Assembly: GCA_030765065.1 (NCBI GenBank) | Contig: CM060975.1 | Location: 107,652,094 to 107,716,093 of the forward strand | Length of the DNA: 64,000 nucleotides | Source: Deroplatys truncata | Lineage: Eukaryota > Arthropoda > Insecta > Mantodea > Mantidae | Direction: 5' to 3' | Shown here: one piece after another, positions 1,191 to 61,107 of the stretch | Layout of the letters: each line of letters begins with the position of its first letter | How positions within the stretch are numbered: the first letter of the stretch is position 1 | Made by a program: the position numbers and the translations under genes | Notes under the pieces: model-generated | Told to the model about the DNA's origin: nothing | Database searches by the model: none | The model's input: only the letters and a program-made list of their open reading frames with translations

Positions 1191-2030
1191 TGAACCGGTT
1201 CTTCAAAAGGTGTGTGCTAAAAGTACTGGTAATGAAGTAACGAATATCTGGAAAATGGCTAATGTCAGAAACATATCTATTTCAAATGAGTTCTGTCCTT
1301 TAACGAGATTTTCATTTAGCAACCTTTTAACTATATGTTATGGTTCCCTAGTTTACACAAGGTTGTGCAAAGTTCAACCAGAAGAAGGGGCTTCTCAGTT
1401 TATTTGTAGAAACTTCAAGACAAGCATTATGTTCCTCTTGTCAATTTGCCAATGTATGTCAAAATCGCTGCAGCATTTATTGAAAAACATAATTTAAAAA
1501 CGAAATATTTTCCACGTAAAGCATGCACTTTTAATCGTGTCTCTTTATTAAAATGGAGGTGCCTAAACTAGGAAGCGTATCGTACCTAGGATTGGGAAGA
1601 CGGTAAGACTGACACAAGGTAACAGGACTGTCCCCGCAAACATTTGTTCACAAAAGTTAAATTCGGGGATATTGGGTTTAATTAACTATATATTATATCC
1701 AGCATGAACACAAAATTCCCATACTCAGACGTTTTCAGAAATAATTACACGAGTTCACACAAATAACGTAATTATTGCAGAGGGAAAGATAAATAAATTA
1801 TGTTGACATAAACACAAAACAGATTTATCTTGATCACTATAGCTTTTCACCTCAGGCTTACCTGGCCATTAAACAGATCAACACCACTAAGAAATAATTC
1901 CCGTTGCACAAAGTAAGTTCCTTCATAAAATATAGTTTATTATATAAACTCATAATACATTGGCAATTTAAAATTTCTCAGAATAACTTAATCTGTATAG
2001 AACATAACAAAATCACAGTAATTAAAAAAA
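1191..2030. other. Unassigned AT-rich DNA
   Basis: No transposon landmarks recognised. A 95-codon plus frame (1210-1497) has no motif I know. It begins inside decayed repeat sequence and is most likely chance. Confidence 0.4.
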
Positions 2031-3604
2031 TCTGATGTGTTACACTCACATGACTTTCTCTACTCTTGTACAAACTATTTTTACAAAAGCTTATTCTCCA
2101 TCTACTTCATGTTAATCGAGATAAACATTTGTAGACTCTGTCTTATTGCTAAGTTTCTTGTAGATGTAAGGGGAATATATATTTACAAGGGCAATATGGA
2201 AATACGTAGCCTTTAAACATATACATATCTCCTAATAGCTGATTGCTAGGTGCAGCACCATTCTCTTTGCTACAGATTAATACTCTTTGCATATCCAAGA
2301 CAAAAAAATCTGATGTGTTACACTCACATGACTTTCTCTACTCTTGTACGAACTATTTTTACAAACGCTTAATCTCCATATGCTTCATGTTAATCGAGCT
2401 ATTCAGATGTCAATCTTATTGATAATTTTCTTGTAGATGCAAGGGGAATATGGTAAGTTTTAAGCGATAGTCAAATACTTTAACGCTGGTTGCTATGTGG
2501 CGCATTCCATTCTCTTTGCATGTCCAGGACATAAAAAAATGAATAACGAATTTGAGAAAAAGTATAAGTATTGGAAAATTTAAGGTAATAGCAAGCAATA
2601 TCTCGCAAACGGTTCACTCAACAAAAGAAATGTATATGACATAAATTGTGTATTTTAACGCGATCTACATTTTTCGTGTAGTAAACTTTTGTCTATCTCT
2701 TATGGTTTACCAGTTATGAAAAAGTCGTTCATAATGAAGAACACTTTTGGAGACATTGCCAGAAAATTCGAGATATACATTTTATTTGCCATGACAATAT
2801 CTTAAACATATGATAGTTTAATCAAAATCGTTAGAGCCGTTTTTGAGAAAATTAAAATTTTCGAAAAATGTTCCATGTAAAGGGTAGTCTGGGGTGGGGG
2901 GATTTTCTTGAAAACCTTCGTGTCGCATCTCTGGAAGATACTGAACCTAAATACTAAGTTTGGTGTTTATCCGACTGTTCGTTTTTGAGTTATGCTGTTC
3001 ACAGACACACAGACACACAGACAGACACACACACGGACATGTTTCCAAAAATGCTCTTTTTGGATTCAGGGGGTCTCAAAACATATATTTCCGGTGAAAT
3101 CTCGGTATCGAATTTTTGGGTGGAATGCAAAAATGAATAACGAATTCCCATTTGAGAAAAGCATTGAAAAATTTAAGGGAATAACAAGCAATATCTCGAA
3201 AATGGTTCACTCAACAAAAAAAATGTATATGACATAAATCGTGTATTTTAACGCGATCTACATTTTTTGTACAGTAAAATTTTGTGTATCTCTTATGGTT
3301 TACCAGTTATGCAAAAGTCGTTCACAATGAAGAATACTTTTGGAGACATTCCCAGAAAATTCAAGATATACATTTTATTTGTCATAAAAATTTCTTAAAC
3401 ATATGATATTTTAATCAAAATCGTTAGAGCCATTTTTGAGAAAATTAAAATTTTCGAAAAATGTTCCATGTAAAGGGTAGTCTGGGGTGGGGGGATTTTC
3501 TTGAAAAGCTTCGTGTCGCATCTCTGGAAGATACTGAACCTGAATACCAAGTTTGGTGTTTATCCGACTCTTCGTTTATGAGTTATGCTGTTCACAGACA
3601 CACA

Positions 3605-3649
<45 letters not shown>

Positions 3650-3781
3650 GGACATGTTTCCAAAAATGCTTTTTTTGGATTCAGGGGGTCTCAAAACATG
3701 TATTTCCGGTGAAATCTCGGTATCGAATTTTTGGGTGGAATACAATACTTCCTCTACTTACTATACGTAGGAGAGAAAATA
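2031..3781 (-). mobile_element. HINE-A element (host copy), split by an inserted HINE-A
   Basis: Read on the minus strand, the 5' part (3781 down to about 3130) runs from a mutated ACTTTCTCTACT end, through the CA tract, to the T-run before the GTCCTGG block. The 3' part (2308 down to 2031) resumes at GTCTTGGATATGC and ends with AGTAGAGAAAGT, the ATGTG/CACAT stem-loop and CAGA plus a T-run. The two parts are one element interrupted by another HINE-A at 2309-3129. It is non-coding. The peptides with Thr-His repeats come from the CA microsatellite (about 3599-3649). Assignment to Helentron-associated elements is inferred from structure only. Confidence 0.7.
2309..3129 (-). mobile_element. HINE-A element nested inside another HINE-A
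   Basis: It starts on the plus strand at TCTGATGTGTTACACTCACA, which is the 3' stem-loop end in minus orientation. It keeps the subterminal ACTTTCTCTACT, the conserved body and a short CA tract (about 3001-3035). About 43 bp of its other end are missing, so it stops at a GGTGGAATGC-like block where the host copy resumes. The insertion point is the host T-run after TTCGTTATTCA. The 3' junction with the host is the same as that at 25117/25118. Confidence 0.7.
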
Positions 3782-3789
3782 AAAATTAA

Positions 3790-24140: not shown

Positions 24141-24286
24141 CTTTGGCCTATAACTTTTGTTTTTGTTACACAGATTTTGTTTTATTATATTTTCTTGAAG
24201 CTCCTGGGTTCTATTGTTCTTAACTTGTTGAACTCTTAACATACATATTATTCACAAAGTGCTGGTTCTTTTTTCACCTATTTTTT

Positions 24287-25117
24287 ACTTTCTCTACTAC
24301 GTATAGTAAGTAGGGGAACTATTGTATTCCACCCAAAAATTCAATACCGAGATTTCACCGGAAATACATGTTTTGAGACCCCCTGAATCCAAAAAAAGCA
24401 TTTTATGAAACATGTCCGTGTGTGTGTGTCTGTCTGTGAACAGCATAACTCAGAAACGAACAGTCGGATAAACACCAAACTTGGTATTTAGGTTCAGTAT
24501 CTTCCAGAGATGCGACACGAAGGTTTTTGAGAAAATCTCCCCACCCCAGATTATCTTTTATATAAAACTTTTTCGAAACTTTTAATTTTCTCAAAAATGG
24601 CTCCAACGATTTTGATTAAAATATCATATCTTTAAGATATTGTCATGAGAAATGAAATGTATATCTTGAATTTTCTGGGAATGTCTCCAAAAGCGTTCTT
24701 CATTGTGAACGACTTTTGCATAACTGGTAAACCATAAGAGATAGATAAAATTTTACTGCACAAAAAATGTAGATCGCGTTAAAATACACAATTTATGTCA
24801 TATACATTTTTTTGTTGAGTGAACCGTTTTCGAGATATTGCTTGTTATTCCCTTAAATTTTCCAATACTTATTCTTTTCTCAAATTCGTTATTCATTTTT
24901 TTTGTCCTGGACATATAACGAGAATGGAATGCGCCACATAGCAACCAGCGCTTAAAAGATTTGACTCTCGCTTAAAACCTATCATATTCCCCTTGCATCT
25001 ACAAGAAAATTAGCAATAAGGTTAACATCTCGATTAACATGAAGCATATGGAGAATAAGCGTTTGTAAGAATAGTTTGTACAAGAGTAGAGAAAGTCATG
25101 TGAGTGTAACACATCAG
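24287..25117 (+). mobile_element. HINE-A element, complete; first half of a composite
   Basis: It starts ACTTTCTCTACTACGTATAG after a T-run. It has a short GT tract (about 24417-24435), the full body, and the AGTAGAGAAAGT, stem-loop and CAGA end, then a T-run. Immediately after, the sequence continues into the 3' part of another HINE-A (25118-25450). Confidence 0.8.
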
Positions 25118-25450
25118 ATTTTTTTTGTCTTGGATATGCAAAGAGTATTAATCTGTGGCAAAGAGAATGGTGCTGCACCAGCTTTTAAGAGATATGTCTA
25201 TGCTTAAAGGCTACTGTATTTCTATACTGCGCTTGTAAATACAAACAAACAGGGGAACATAGTACGCCTTAAGCGATAGTCGAATATTTTTAGAACTGGT
25301 TGCTATGTGTAAAATGTAATTCTCTTTGCATGCAAAAGATCGATTCTGCAAATGTTTATCTCAATTAATATGAAATAGATGGAGAATAAGAGTTTGTAAA
25401 AATAGTTTGTACAAGAGTAGAGAAAGTCATGTGAGTGTAACACATCAGAT
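25118..25450 (+). mobile_element. 3' part of a second HINE-A, fused to the preceding copy
   Basis: It begins GTCTTGGATATGCAAAGAG and includes a duplicated segment (TATTAATCTGTGGCAAAG) that is also present at 2280-2308 but not in other copies. It ends with its own AGTAGAGAAAGT, stem-loop and CAGA. No 5' half of this element is visible upstream of 24287. Confidence 0.75.
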
Positions 25451-25674
25451 TTTTTTTATAGAATTATTGATCATTTGCACCCGGGACCTGATTTTAGAAT
25501 AAACCTACAAGTGTGTTTAATACTAGAGAAAACTCACACTCGCTTATTGTATTAACCAAGGATATTCTTCTCTTTCTCCTCCTCTTTCACTGTCTCTCAA
25601 ACCCTTTCCTTTCTCCGTGTAAGTCATTTATTGTTTTGTAACCTATAAGAAAACTGCTGTTTATAATGCTAATA

Positions 25675-28702: not shown

Positions 28703-29983
28703 CGAGGGGCACTATTTATATTTTGAGCCTTGGCAACCCTGAATATTGTAGGTGACATCTGACGTTTCCAATGGAAAGTTTGATATTTTTACCATAATTT
28801 ACCTCAAACATTTTGTCAATAGAGCGTCATTTGTTTTGTTTACACTAACTTGAAAATGGTGTGCCAACAAAAACATGGAATTAACTCGTGAAAATGTTCG
28901 TGCAATGCTTTATTATGACCTTCGACGTGGATTATCAAGACAAGAGTGCGTCGATCAACTAACTTCCACATTTGACGGCAAAGCTCCATCCTTTGCCACC
29001 GTGAAACACTGGTATAACGAATTTAATCGTGTCCGCCGTTCGCTCAATGATGAAGTTCGTGAAGGTCGTCCAAAATCAGTTGTGCCAGAAAACAATGATG
29101 ATGTGCAAAAACTAATAATGAAAGATCGTCATACGACATATTGTGAGATTGAGGCAACCCTAGGCATTAGTTCCACCAGCATATGTAAAATATTGCATGA
29201 TTATTTAGCTGTGAAAAAGGTTTTCTCTCGTTGGATCTCACATAATTTGACGCAATCTCAAAAAGATGCTCGTGTCGATTGGTGTACTAAAATGCTCCAG
29301 AAATACAATGGCGGTGCCCCAAAAGACGTATATAAGATTCTAACAGATGACGAATCATGGATCTATGCGTATGAGCCGGAACAGCAGTCGACTGTATGGG
29401 TGTTTCAAGATGAAGCAAATCCAACAAAAGTTGTTCGCACTCGAAGCACTTCGAAGCAAATGGTCGCCTGCTTTTTCAGCAAAACTGGCCATGTGGCAAC
29501 AGTGCCTTTAGAGGAACGTAAAACGGTCAATGCCGAATGGTACACAACCATTTGTTTGCCGGAAGTCTTCGGTGATGTAAGGAAAACCAACAAGAACCGT
29601 AGGATCGTTCTTCATCAAGACAATGCGAGGGCACACACATCTCGTCTAACAACAAAGTATTTGAAGGTTCAAATAATCGAATTGTTGGGTTATCCGCCAA
29701 ACAGTCCTGATTTGGCACCCAATGACTTCTTTTTGTTCCCGAACATCAAGAATAAATTGCGTGGACAACGATTTCGTTGGCAGAAGAAGCCGTTGATGCC
29801 TTAAAAATCCATGTTTTGGAGGTGTTTTAAGAATACTGGAATAAATGCTTTAACAAATGGTTCAAACGGATGCAAAAGTGTATTGATCGTAAAGGAAAAT
29901 ATTTTGAAAAATAATAAAGCAGTTTTCAATCAGAAATTACTTTGTTTTAATTATTAGGCTCAAAATATAAATAGTGCCCCTCG
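28703..29983 (+). mobile_element. mariner element, full length, nearly intact
   Basis: Perfect or near-perfect 27-bp inverted repeats begin CGAGGGGCACTATTTATATT and are flanked by the TA target duplication (28701-28702 and 29984-29985). The length (1281 bp) is typical of mariner. One transposase frame fills the interior, with few disabling changes, so this is among the youngest insertions in the window. Confidence 0.95.
28875..29914 (+). pseudogene. mariner transposase (DD34D), two disabling changes near the C terminus
   Basis: The frame is open from ATG 28875 for 309 codons. The N-terminal paired helix-turn-helix region spans about residues 1-110 (MELTRENVRAMLYYDLRRGL; WYNEFNRVRRSL; REGRPKS). 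The linker motif appears as RWISHNL. Catalytic residues are seen in LTDDESWIYAYEP, LHQDNARAHTS and NSPDLAPNDFFLF, with 34 residues between the second and third Asp. Near 29774 one base appears missing (RF then RWQKK instead of an AEEAVDALK continuation). The restored frame then has a TAA at 29828-29830 before the natural end KRMQKCIDRKGKYFEK at 29912. Uninterrupted it would be about 346 residues, the usual length. It acts in the nucleus on its own inverted repeats. Confidence 0.93.
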
Positions 29984-56277: not shown

Positions 56278-57919
56278 CAACGTTGCCAACCCGGAAACAT
56301 TTATTCCGTTAAACTGAAGTTAAAATTCCGCTAAAATCCGCTAAATCTTATTATTGTTGTTGTTTGTCCTCTTAAAAGTGAAATTTCAATGTACTGTAAC
56401 TTACAAAAAAATTTTCTTTATCATGGTACATTATTAGTATTATTATTAAACATTTTATATTCCGCTCACCATATTATTGTAGTTCAAGCCACAGCATTTC
56501 ATTTTCATCCTGCATTAGAGTGTCTTCTTTGTCCACTGTTGAAGTACTGGGGCCAGCTGGAGAAATGTCTGCGTCGTATGCTCTCATGGTGCCGATTTCT
56601 CGGAGAACATCTTCTGGCAGCTCGTAATCATGGCAACACTTGCCCACACGATTAAGGCCAGCTCTTATTGTAATCATGGCGTTCACCATAACAGTAGTTA
56701 GTCTGTTGCGCAGTGATGCTTTTATCAAGTTTAACTGGCTAAATGTCCTTTCCATGTCTGCATTAGACCAGGGTAAAACCAGAAGTATTAAAGCCAGATA
56801 CGAAAGGTCTTGGAAAGAATTTAAGCCGGTAGCATCCTTATATGACCTAACTTCATTCCAGAACGCCGCAGTATTGTGTATTTCTTTCCACTGCACGGTA
56901 GTGAGCTTCGACCACTGAAAGTCAATTTTGGTTACTGTAAAGTCGGACAAGCCCGTTTCCTTGACCAACGATACTATCGGTTCTTTTATCACTCGCAAGC
57001 CTTCACTCGGAGGAATTAAGGACTCGTTCTGCAACACCTTCACATTTGGGCAAGCGGCGTTGCAGCTCAGAAGCAAGGGAAACAAGAAAATGTTCATATC
57101 TTTTCCTTATGACGTTTTCAACCTCGGATGAAATTTTGTTGGTGTTGTTCATATCTTGCAGCAAGACTTCGACTTCATGACCTAAGTATACTCTCGGCAA
57201 CTTATGTTTACCAACATCAGCTGTTAAAAGATCACCCCTCTACCCTGGTACAACAATTCTCCTAACGAGCCCACTCATTAGTAAAACAACATCGTTTAGA
57301 AGTCGTGATTGGTCTGCAGAATTGGACTGAAATGCCTTATTTACCAGCTGACATTCTTCCAAATAAGGTTTCAGAAAAGTGAGGTAAATTTTGTTTATGT
57401 TATCACTGTCATATTATAAAGAAGTTGAGCAGTATAGCATTTCTCATCAAGTGCTGCTATTTCAAAGTGCGCTTTTTGTTCAAGCCACTGAGACAGAACA
57501 CGAGAGACAAGCTCTAAAATAGACATCCAACGTGTGTTGCACTTCTGAACTATTTTAAGTGAATTAGCTCCGTCATTTATCTCATTACATATAAACACAT
57601 TTTCTCGCAGGACATGAAGGTATACATAGATGTCATATTCATATGGTATTGTGCAATGTGCACGTTTCATCACTTAGACTGAAATGGGTGTGCGGGAAGA
57701 GGGAAGACTAACTTACAGTTTCATCTAGGATTTTTTTCCCACTAAATCTGATTTCCAATTATATAATTGAAACAGAGTATTAAACAGAAAAATATTATTT
57801 TAAACAATAGTCCATATATCCGTTAAAAAACCGTTGACCGCTATATGCAAAATTTCACCCGTTGGTGATGTGTAAAATCCGTCAAATCTAGCGGAAATTC
57901 CACTAACTTGGCAACCCTG
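56278..57919 (-). mobile_element. hAT element, internally deleted
   Basis: A perfect 8-bp target duplication CTAATGTC flanks it (56270-56277 and 57920-57927), diagnostic for hAT. The right end inverted reads CAGGGTTGCCAAGTT and the left CAACGTTGCCAACCC, a degenerate pair. Subterminal repeats with CCGCTAAAATCCGC recur near both ends. The length is 1642 bp and only the C-terminal part of the transposase is present. Confidence 0.9.
56474..57673 (-). pseudogene. hAT transposase C-terminal part
   Basis: The minus strand reads QKCNTRWMSILELVSRVLSQ and KAHFEIAALDEKCYTAQLLY. After a frameshift near 57395 come IYLTFLKPYLEECQLVNKAF and VRRIVVPG, an in-frame TAG at 57240-57242, and LPRVYLGHEVEVLLQDMNN. 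After a second frameshift near 57050-57097, ALILLVLPWSNADMERTFSQ and LIKASLRNRLTTVMVNAM form the hAT dimerisation domain, with KCCHDYELPEDVLREIGTM near the end. This organisation is close to the KIAA1586/SCAND3-like hAT proteins. The BED finger and N-terminal catalytic region are absent. Confidence 0.85.
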
Positions 57920-58924: not shown

Positions 58925-59408
58925 ACATTTCTTTACAGATACAAAGGGAACAGCAATAAGCAAATGTTTAAAAGCGGGTCGGTATATGATGTTACATGCT
59001 ATGCTCTTTGTTTCATCAAAAGAAACAACTGACGGTTAACAGTGCTTCAAAAATGAAATTGAAAAGTAATGACAAATTCAAACCAATAACAAAGGATATC
59101 CCTGAAATTGCTGATGCCACTAAATAAAGGTTAGGGATTTCAAAAAAAGTGTCTACTTTAAAGAAAATCTATATTTCTTATGGTTAACTATTACACATAC
59201 GTACACAATTCTTTCCGAATTAAAGACTTTATAGGCTGTTGCCAAAAAATTTAACATATACATTTTATTTGCCAAGTAAATTTCTTATGTGATATTTTAA
59301 TCACAATTCTTGGAATTTTTGAGAAAATGAAAAGAAGGAAAAAATTACTTTCAAAGACTAGTGTTGGATGGAGATCATCTTGAAAATCTTCGGAAGCTTC
59401 CTTTTTTA

Positions 59409-59535
59409 CTTTCTCTACTACGTATAGTAAGTAGGGGAAGTATTGCATTCCACCCAAAAATTCGATACCGAGATTTCACCGGAAATACATGTTTTGAGAC
59501 CTCCTGAATCCAAAAAAAGCATTTTTGGAAACATG

Positions 59536-59575
<40 letters not shown>

Positions 59576-60273
59576 TGTGAACAGCATAACTCAAAAACGA
59601 ACAGTCGGATAAGCACCAAACTTGGTATTTAGGTTCAGTATCTTCCAGAGATGCGACACGAAGGTTTTCAAGAAAATCCCCCCAACCCCGACTACCCTTT
59701 ACATGGAAGATTTTTCGAAAATTTTAATTTTCTCAAAAATGGCTCTAACGATTTTGATTAAAATATCATATGTTTAAGATAATGTCATGAGAAATGAAAT
59801 GTATATCTCGAATTTTCTGGGAATGTCTCCAAAAGTATTCTTCATTGTGAACGACTTTTGCATAACTGGTAAACCATAAGAGATAGACAAAATTTTACAA
59901 CACAAAAAATGTAGATCGCGTTAAAATACACAACTTATGTCATATACATTTCTTTTGTTGAGTGAACCGTTTTCGAGATATTGCTTGTTATTTCCTTAAA
60001 TTTTCCAATACTTATACTTTTTCTCAAATTCGTTATTCATTTTTTTATGTCCTGGACATGCAAAGAGAATGGAATGCGCCACATAGCAACCAGCGTTAAA
60101 ATATTTGACTATCGCTTAAAAGCTACCATAATTCCCTTGCATCTACAAGAAAATTACCAATAAGATTGACATCTGGATATCTCGATTAACATGAAGCATA
60201 TGGAGAATAGGCGTTTGTAAAAATAGATTGTACAAGAGTAGAGAAAGTTATGTGAATGTAACACATCAGATTT
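59409..60273 (+). mobile_element. HINE-A element, first of a tandem pair
   Basis: It starts ACTTTCTCTACTACGTATAG after a T-run. The GT tract is long (about 59538-59574). It ends AGTAGAGAAAGTTATGTGAA and ACACATCAGA plus T's. The second copy begins directly after the T-run. Confidence 0.85.
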
Positions 60274-60288
60274 TTTTTACTTTCTCTA

Positions 60289-61107
60289 CTACGTATAGTA
60301 AGTAGTGGAAGTATTGTATTCCACCCAAAAATTCGATACCGAGATTTCACCGGAAATACATGTTTTGAGACCCCCTGAATCAAAAAAAGTATTTTTGGAA
60401 ACATGTCCGTGTGTGTGAGTCTGTCTGTCTATGAACAGCATAACTCAGAAACGAACAGTCGGATAAACACCAAACTTGGTATTTAGGTTTAGTATCTTCC
60501 AGAGATGCAACACGAAGGTTTTCAAGAAAATCCCCTCACCCCAGATCACCCTTTACATGGAACGTTTTTCGAAAACTTTAATTTGCTCAAAAATGGCTCT
60601 AACGATTTGGATTAAAATATCATATATTTAAGATACTTTCATAACAAATAAAATGTATATCTTGAATTTTCTGGGAATGTCTCCAAAAGTATTCTTCATT
60701 GTGAACGACTTTTGCATAACTGGTAAACCATAAGAGATAGACAAAATGATACTACATATATTTGTCACATACATTTCTTTTTTGGTTGAGTGAACCATTT
60801 TCAGGATATTGCTTGTTATTCCCTTAAATTTTCCAATACTTATACTTTTTCTCAAATGGGAATTCGTTATTCATTTTTTTTGTCTTGGACATGCAAAGAG
60901 ACTGGAATACTCCACTTAGCAACCAGCTCTTAAAATATTTGACTATCGCTTAAAGGCTACCAATTCCCCTTGCATCTACAAGAAAATTAGCAATAAGATT
61001 AACATCTCGATATCTCGATTAACATGAAGTATATGGAGAATAAGCGTTTGTAAAAATAGTTTGTACAAGAGTAGAGAAAGTCATGTGAGTATAACACATC
61101 AGATTTT
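60289..61107 (+). mobile_element. HINE-A element, second of a tandem pair
   Basis: It starts ACTTTCTCTACTACGTATAG, has a short GT tract (about 60408-60428) and ends AGTAGAGAAAGTCATGTGAG and AACACATCAGA with T's. It is missing a few dozen bases around 60750 relative to its neighbour, so the pair is not a perfect duplication. Confidence 0.85.

What the first reader, a model, noticed from the sequence alone, without database searches (positions are those of the whole stretch)
24287..25450. Composite element that looks like rolling-circle read-through past a 3' terminator
A complete HINE-A (24287-25117) is followed, after its T-run, by the 3' part of another HINE-A (25118-25450) with its own terminator. 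The same junction, with the same unusual duplicated segment (TATTAATCTGTGGCAAAG here; one base different there), occurs on the minus strand at 2280-2308, where a HINE-A is nested in a host HINE-A and both host halves survive. At 24287 the host's 5' half is missing. That is what is expected if replication started at the inner copy's 5' end, skipped its terminator and stopped at the host's terminator, moving the composite as one unit. Terminator bypass is an established idea for Helitron-type elements. Its application here is my inference. The inner copy at 2309-3129 lacks its 5' tip, so the donor was a paralogous or earlier version.
Basis: partly seen in the sequence, partly recalled or inferred. 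Interest (0 to 1): 0.8.

Follow-up and report, generated by a model that had tools for sequence, protein, structure and literature searches.

The report
Two-tailed composite of nested rolling-circle repeats
A short mobile repeat at this spot carries, behind its own end signal, the end part of a related repeat into which such elements often insert; it is one of very many such composites in this genome, and copying past the first end signal is a likely but unproven way it arose.

Summary
The structure is real. 24287-25118 is a complete HINE-like element (5' half M5 plus 3' part A3). After its T-run, 25127-25449 is the 3' module of a related native element, HINE-Y, with its own terminator. No host 5' half lies upstream.

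The "unusual duplicated segment" is native to HINE-X/Y elements, whose internal T-run is the usual landing site, and the two inner copies are not close relatives. The fused junction is common: 3,569 exact end-to-X/Y and 8,147 end-to-A3 junctions, against 14,640 nested 5' junctions. In a sample, 13 of 29 X/Y-type junction loci lack the host 5' half.

Read-through is one of two routes with support. The other is recombination between the two direct 5' halves of a nested pair, which leaves the same structure. Among 18 A-type composites with a readable start, 7 carry A-type bases from the start of the 5' half (fits read-through) and 10 carry an X/Y-type base there (fits recombination or older subfamilies). 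Copy 24287 cannot be assigned: only a crossover right of about bp 370-382 is excluded. I lean slightly to read-through.

The parts
24287..24903 (+). M5, HINE 5' half with 5' subTIR ACTTTCTCTACT (24287-24298), ending in the internal T-run 24896-24903
24904..25118 (+). A3, 3' part of HINE-A: 3' subTIR 25085-25096, stem-loop ATGTGAGTGTAACACAT 25098-25114, end CACATCAGA 25110-25118
25119..25126 (+). T-run joining the first terminator to the second 3' module (fused junction)
25127..25449 (+). TY, 3' module of HINE-Y: segment TATTAATCTGTGGCAAAG 25146-25163, second 3' subTIR 25416-25427, stem-loop 25429-25445, end CACATCAGA 25441-25449, then T-run 25450-25457
   Evidence: native M5+TY copies such as L010, L011, L018, L038
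25251..25332 (-). piece of A3 in inverted orientation inside TY; native TY copies align over it
24233..24286 (+). left flank: stretch of another repeat; in 8 of 8 copies read elsewhere the 90 bp printed after the T-run are not HINE
3131..3785 (-). comparison locus: host 5' half (M5 of a HINE-X)
2309..3130 (-). comparison locus: nested HINE-A lacking about its first 35 bp
2026..2308 (-). comparison locus: host 3' module TX

Best explanation
The 24287-25457 element is the inner-plus-host-tail derivative of a nested pair: a HINE-A inserted into the internal T-run of a HINE-Y. This nested origin I hold at about 0.9. It most likely reached this T-run as one unit, copied by rolling circle from the inner 5' end, past the inner 3' terminator, to the host's terminator. 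Shown: the modules, the native hosts, nested intermediates elsewhere, and the absence of the host half here. Inferred: that the unit moved, and by read-through. The confidence given is for the whole statement including read-through.
For: Native M5+TY and M5+TX elements show the uninterrupted host. Nested intermediates with both host halves: L002, L003, 11 of 29 X/Y-type junction loci, and 9 of the 14 loci. L013 has A3 followed by a host piece that starts at a different internal T-run, so the join follows the insertion point. In the 29 loci fetched besides the window's own, none of the tails that brought them in stands alone without M5 or an element end before it. 7 of 18 A-type composites without host half carry A-type bases at M5 sites 44, 100 and 192; if M5 crossovers were uniform, 7 or more has P=1.4e-4. 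Leaving out L103 (A-type host), then also L053 (behind another element's end), then also L107 (b-type host) gives P=8e-4, 0.004 and 0.018. In 24287 the two parts look equally old: M5/tail private-change ratio 1.55, against 1.57 where M5 is directly followed by X/Y (22 copies) and 0.70 in nested loci (19). The left flank is another repeat broken at its T-run.
Against: 10 of 18 composites without host half carry the X/Y base at M5 site 44, against 5 of 39 nested inners (Fisher P=0.002), as recombination would leave, or an older subfamily. Host-like bases at both bp 382 and 389 occur in 4 of 18 (L014, L026, L043, L045) against 2 of 39 (P=0.07). At bp 290 copy 24287 itself has the base of 18 of 19 HINE-Y but of only 2 of 11 old HINE-A copies, a group I picked by hand. 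The clock test on this one locus does not exclude the nested ratio (P=0.10). No sister of this composite was seen among the 40 candidates scored (of 7,431), so movement as a unit is not shown directly.
Confidence: 0.45

Rival explanations
1. Recombination collapse: HINE-Y inserted at 24287, a HINE-A nested in its T-run, and homologous recombination between the two direct M5 copies (about 620 bp) removed one M5, leaving a host/inner hybrid M5 plus A3 plus TY at the host's own site. No terminator was skipped.
For: Excess of X/Y bases at the M5 start in composites, 10 of 18 against 5 of 39; mostly host-like M5 before A-type sequence in L014, L026, L043 and L045, though L026 has the A base at bp 290 and L045 at bp 44; the Y-type base at bp 290 of 24287.
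Against: A-type bases from bp 370/382 onward in 24287 exclude a crossover further right. L003's inner copy, whose host half is still present, and L077 carry nearly the same site pattern, so it can be an old subfamily. Host-like bases at bp 382 and 389 are only weakly enriched (4 of 18 against 2 of 39, P=0.07). Seven composites have A-type M5 from the start, too many for uniform crossovers.
Confidence: 0.38
2. Loss of the host 5' half by an ordinary deletion.
For: L084 keeps only about 19 bp matching the end of M5 before its inner element, and L100 perhaps a shorter remnant, so such losses may occur.
Against: At 24287 the M5 tip abuts the T-run of another repeat exactly, with no host remnant.
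Confidence: 0.07
3. A 5'-truncated HINE-Y, starting at its internal T-run, inserted into the terminal T-run of an older HINE-A.
For: Stacks such as M5-TX-TX-TX-TY (L022) look like tails added one by one.
Against: No solo tail at a non-HINE T-run among the tails that brought in the 29 loci besides the window's own; nested intermediates are common instead.
Confidence: 0.05
4. Segmental duplication of the 2-4 kb locus with later loss.
For: Same module order in the part that remains.
Against: No flank similarity; different tail types, TX at 2-4 kb and TY at 24 kb; the inner copies are not close relatives.
Confidence: 0.02

Closest known systems
HINE / DINE-1, non-autonomous Helentrons (Thomas et al. 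2014, PMC4067079; passages read)
   Same: Subterminal inverted repeats, 3' palindrome, microsatellite, T-rich insertion site, no coding capacity; [quoted passage not shown]
   Different: Here three 3' modules (A3, TX, TY) share one kind of 5' half, and elements repeatedly insert into the family's own internal T-run; junctions are counted genome-wide. The 3' subTIR may lie a little closer to the end than in mite HINEs.
Helraiser read-through / 3' transduction (Grabundzija et al. 2016, PMC4778049; passages read)
   Same: The 3' hairpin acts as terminator, can be bypassed, and an alternative terminator downstream is used; about 11.7% of transposition events captured the flank in their assay.
   Different: Bat Helitron with a defined CTAG end, tested in cells; here it is inference from sequence and the downstream sequence is a related element's tail.
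Cg_HINE of Crassostrea gigas (PMC7492417; passages read)
   Same: HINE ends, TT or T-rich target, no target-site duplication seen.
   Different: Those carry arrays of tandem repeats inside; here whole 3' or 5' halves are stacked.

Membership tests
HINE (Helentron-associated interspersed element) | 12-15 bp subterminal inverted repeats | tested here: met
   ACTTTCTCTACT at 24287 and its exact complement AGTAGAGAAAGT at 25085 and 25416
HINE (Helentron-associated interspersed element) | 3' subTIR about 38-60 bp from the 3' end (mite HINEs) | tested here: inconclusive
   22 bp from its end to CAGA, 30 with the T-run (positions); the paper's way of measuring was not checked
[quoted passage not shown]
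   ATGTG/CACAT stem at 25098 and 25429; predicted folding is not stronger than shuffles, z -0.41 and -1.15
HINE (Helentron-associated interspersed element) | insertion into T-rich sequence without target duplication | tested here: inconclusive
   T-runs at both ends here and at nested sites, and the left flank is interrupted at its T-run: the T-rich part is met. The right flank has no counterpart in the 8 repeat copies read, so the absence of a duplication is not tested here
HINE (Helentron-associated interspersed element) | autonomous Helentron partner with the same ends | tested here: inconclusive
   152 Helitron_like_N matches from 150 of 291 candidates scored, 18 listed rows with open frames of 2,000 aa or more; control genomes 0 of 14. 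HINE end motifs were not found in the two stretches read near one of them, L125 (about 330 bp before the frame) and L126; about 1.6 kb after the frame stayed unread
Terminator-bypass (read-through) composite | starts at one element's 5' end, includes its 3' terminator, ends at a later terminator | tested here: met
Terminator-bypass (read-through) composite | 5' half wholly derived from the inner element | tested here: inconclusive
   A-type from bp 370/382 on; left part shared by old HINE-A and HINE-Y
Terminator-bypass (read-through) composite | present at a site different from the donor nested locus | not testable with these tools
   donor not identified; one assembly only
Recombination-collapse product | hybrid M5: host type in front, inner type behind | tested here: inconclusive
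   mostly so in L014, L026, L043, L045 (or an old subfamily); undecided in 24287

The most novel reading that the evidence does not exclude
This HINE family builds itself modularly: its own internal T-run is a recurrent landing site, and repeated nesting plus read-through and recombination has produced thousands of stacked elements (for example M5-TX-TX-TX-TY and M5-M5-M5-A3), so that 5' and 3' halves evolve as exchangeable modules.
Probability: 0.45. Interest if true: 0.65.

Novelty: new variant of a known kind. Interest (0 to 1): 0.48.

Why it matters
In the passages I read, terminator bypass is shown in cells for a bat Helitron and only proposed for Helentron-type elements. A family with distinguishable 5' halves, several tail types and thousands of nested junctions lets bypass be measured against recombination in natural data, from the bases at the start of the 5' half. 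It also warns that a missing host half alone does not prove read-through.

Tried and rejected
Common descent of the 24 kb and 2-4 kb composites: rejected. An amplified composite subfamily: with L057's composite found many full-length relatives, mostly at 90-95%, among 40 candidates scored of 8,053. My reading of that table called L070-L073 unnested; one search showed all four to be nested. The five true units L074-L078 had no sister close in both parts; L078's A part is 1.7% from the nested L070. The first likelihood profile was distorted by gaps and replaced. A clean recombination breakpoint in 24287 was suspected and withdrawn when L003 and L077 showed nearly the same pattern. In one search I compared 'host-like through bp 389' as 4 of 18 against 0 of 39 (P=0.008) by a loose rule; the plain count is 4 of 18 against 2 of 39 (P=0.07), and I lowered the recombination odds from 0.40 to 0.38 for it. 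The age ratio of M5 to tail does not separate the routes across all composites; its 22 'native' copies include 6 with further tails. Rows dropped: L001, L009, L034 and L046 as duplicates; L111 and L114 as the same larger repeat as L110; L044 from the 39 nested controls because its M5 is X-like (with it, 6 of 40 at site 44, P=0.003, and 3 of 40 at bp 382/389, P=0.19); L013, L059 and L084 from the 18 composites (A-type at the start, but nested, unclear or with a host remnant); L052, L054, L055, L060 and L108 because their M5 start is missing or hidden; the L069 array counted once. L043, counted as a unit, sits in an older M5-like relic. The diagnostic sites were chosen after seeing the data and copies are related, so P values are only guides. 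Rfam search of the window: nothing over the curators' thresholds.

Full report
What is there. The window lies in a 4.29-Gb assembly of 818 contigs, of a eukaryote as I judge from its size and repeats. 24287-25118 is a complete HINE-like element: 5' ACTTTCTCTACT, a 3' copy in inverse complement, a small stem-loop and the end CACATCAGA, with T-runs around it. Directly after its T-run comes 25127-25449, a second 3' module with all the same 3' signals, then a T-run. I call the shared 5' half M5 and the 3' modules A3, TX and TY. Native, uninterrupted elements exist as M5+A3, M5+TX and M5+TY. The window composite is M5-A3-TY. The module TY carries an inverted A3-like piece (25251-25332), also present in other TY copies.

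The supposed special junction. The segment TATTAATCTGTGGCAAAG, or a close variant, follows the M5 T-run in native X/Y elements: a motif search matched in 11 of 15 native loci. Native M5-to-X/Y junctions number 32,508 exact matches. Element-end-to-X/Y junctions number 3,569, element-end-to-A3 junctions 8,147, and nested 5' junctions (M5 end followed by a new 5' tip) 14,640. The backward-read controls of these four searches were 0. So elements of this family land in the family's own internal T-run very often, and a shared junction says nothing about descent. The inner copy at 2-4 kb is nearest to L058 (2.1%) and the window copy 24287 to L006 (5.5%) among 40 A parts. The 500-bp flanks of the two loci share nothing at E<=1e-3.

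Nested and half-nested loci. The 30 loci fetched at X/Y-type junctions are the first 30 listed, all on contig C1, and 29 are distinct. I read 11 as nested with the host M5 directly upstream, 13 as units without it, and 5 as unclear. Among the 13, L066 lacks the first 33 bp of M5, L052 has an internal gap and L043 sits in an older M5-like relic. Of the first 23 places (22 loci), 9 are nested (L087, L089, L094, L095, L099, L102, L104-L106), 9 are units (7 if three copies of one larger repeat are counted once) and 4 are unclear. Of 16 loci at 5' junctions, 6 are balanced nests, 6 lack a host tail, 1 has an extra tail, 1 keeps only a host remnant and 2 are complex; 5 of these 16 are also among the 22. 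In these small samples loss of the host tail is about as frequent as loss of the host head. Copying that starts at the host 5' end and stops at the first terminator would give the former without any bypass. Tail stacks reach M5-TX-TX-TX-TY (L022), and L013 has a host piece starting at another internal T-run.

Read-through or recombination. The M5 copies in front of A3 and in front of X/Y differ at several positions. Read-through must give an M5 of the inner type from its tip; recombination between the two M5 copies of a nest must give host type in front and inner type behind. In 18 composites without host half with a readable start, 7 are A-type at positions 44, 100 and 192 and 10 have the X/Y base at 44; in 39 nested inners 26 and 5. 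X/Y bases at both 382 and 389 occur in 4 of 18 against 2 of 39 (P=0.07). Recombination alone with uniform crossovers would rarely give 7 of 18 (P=1.4e-4); stricter choices of composites give P=8e-4 to 0.018. Read-through alone does not explain the excess of X/Y bases at the start (P=0.002), unless composites simply come from older HINE-A subfamilies, which I cannot exclude. I conclude that both routes probably operate.

The copy in question. M5 of 24287 reads X/Y-like or old-A-like up to bp 290 and mostly A-like from bp 370/382 on, with a few X/Y-like bases among them; L003's inner copy (host half still present) and the unit L077 share nearly this pattern. At bp 290 it has the base of 18 of 19 HINE-Y and 2 of 11 hand-picked old HINE-A copies. 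Its two parts have the private-change ratio of coeval sequence (1.55; M5 directly followed by X/Y 1.57; nested 0.70), but the nested ratio is not excluded (P=0.10). The last 54 bp of the left flank belong to another repeat with 38 further matches listed; in 8 of 8 copies read, the 90 bp printed after the T-run are not HINE. The right flank is not that repeat's continuation in those copies, so a full empty site was not found. I put read-through at 0.45 and recombination at 0.38.

Relation to what is known. Thomas et al. [quoted passage not shown] Grabundzija et al. (PMC4778049, passages read) show bypass of the 3' hairpin for a bat Helitron. The genome holds Helitron_like_N genes, 18 listed rows with open frames of 2,000 aa or more, but I could not show that they share these ends. 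Paper searches listed no title on composites built by nesting into an internal T-run; I read passages of three papers only, so this is no proof of novelty.

Noticed in passing
L069 (C1:93435200-93441400): Tandem array of a composite (M5-A3-TX plus a short M5 end and the first 103 bp of TX), about 1.3 kb per unit, units about 96-97% alike: a possible rolling-circle concatemer or unequal-crossover array.
   Followed up: partly
C1:13833732-13843086, 26123579-26132956, 32879668-32889020; shorter form 22028068-22033263: Pairs of nested 5' junctions about 442-451 bp apart recur in inverted orientation about 9.4 kb (once 5.2 kb) apart, suggesting a larger recurrent element bounded by inverted M5 doublets (one search list); it could not be read.
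   Followed up: no
L110, L111, L114, L115: Composites M5-TX followed by another tail share upstream flank sequence: a composite carried along inside another repeat.
   Followed up: no
window 59403-61107: Two HINE-A copies head to tail, the second starting in the terminal T-run of the first.
   Followed up: no
window 28854-29801 and 56474-57106: Mariner-like transposase reading frame and a hAT dimerisation region, relics of other transposons.
   Followed up: no
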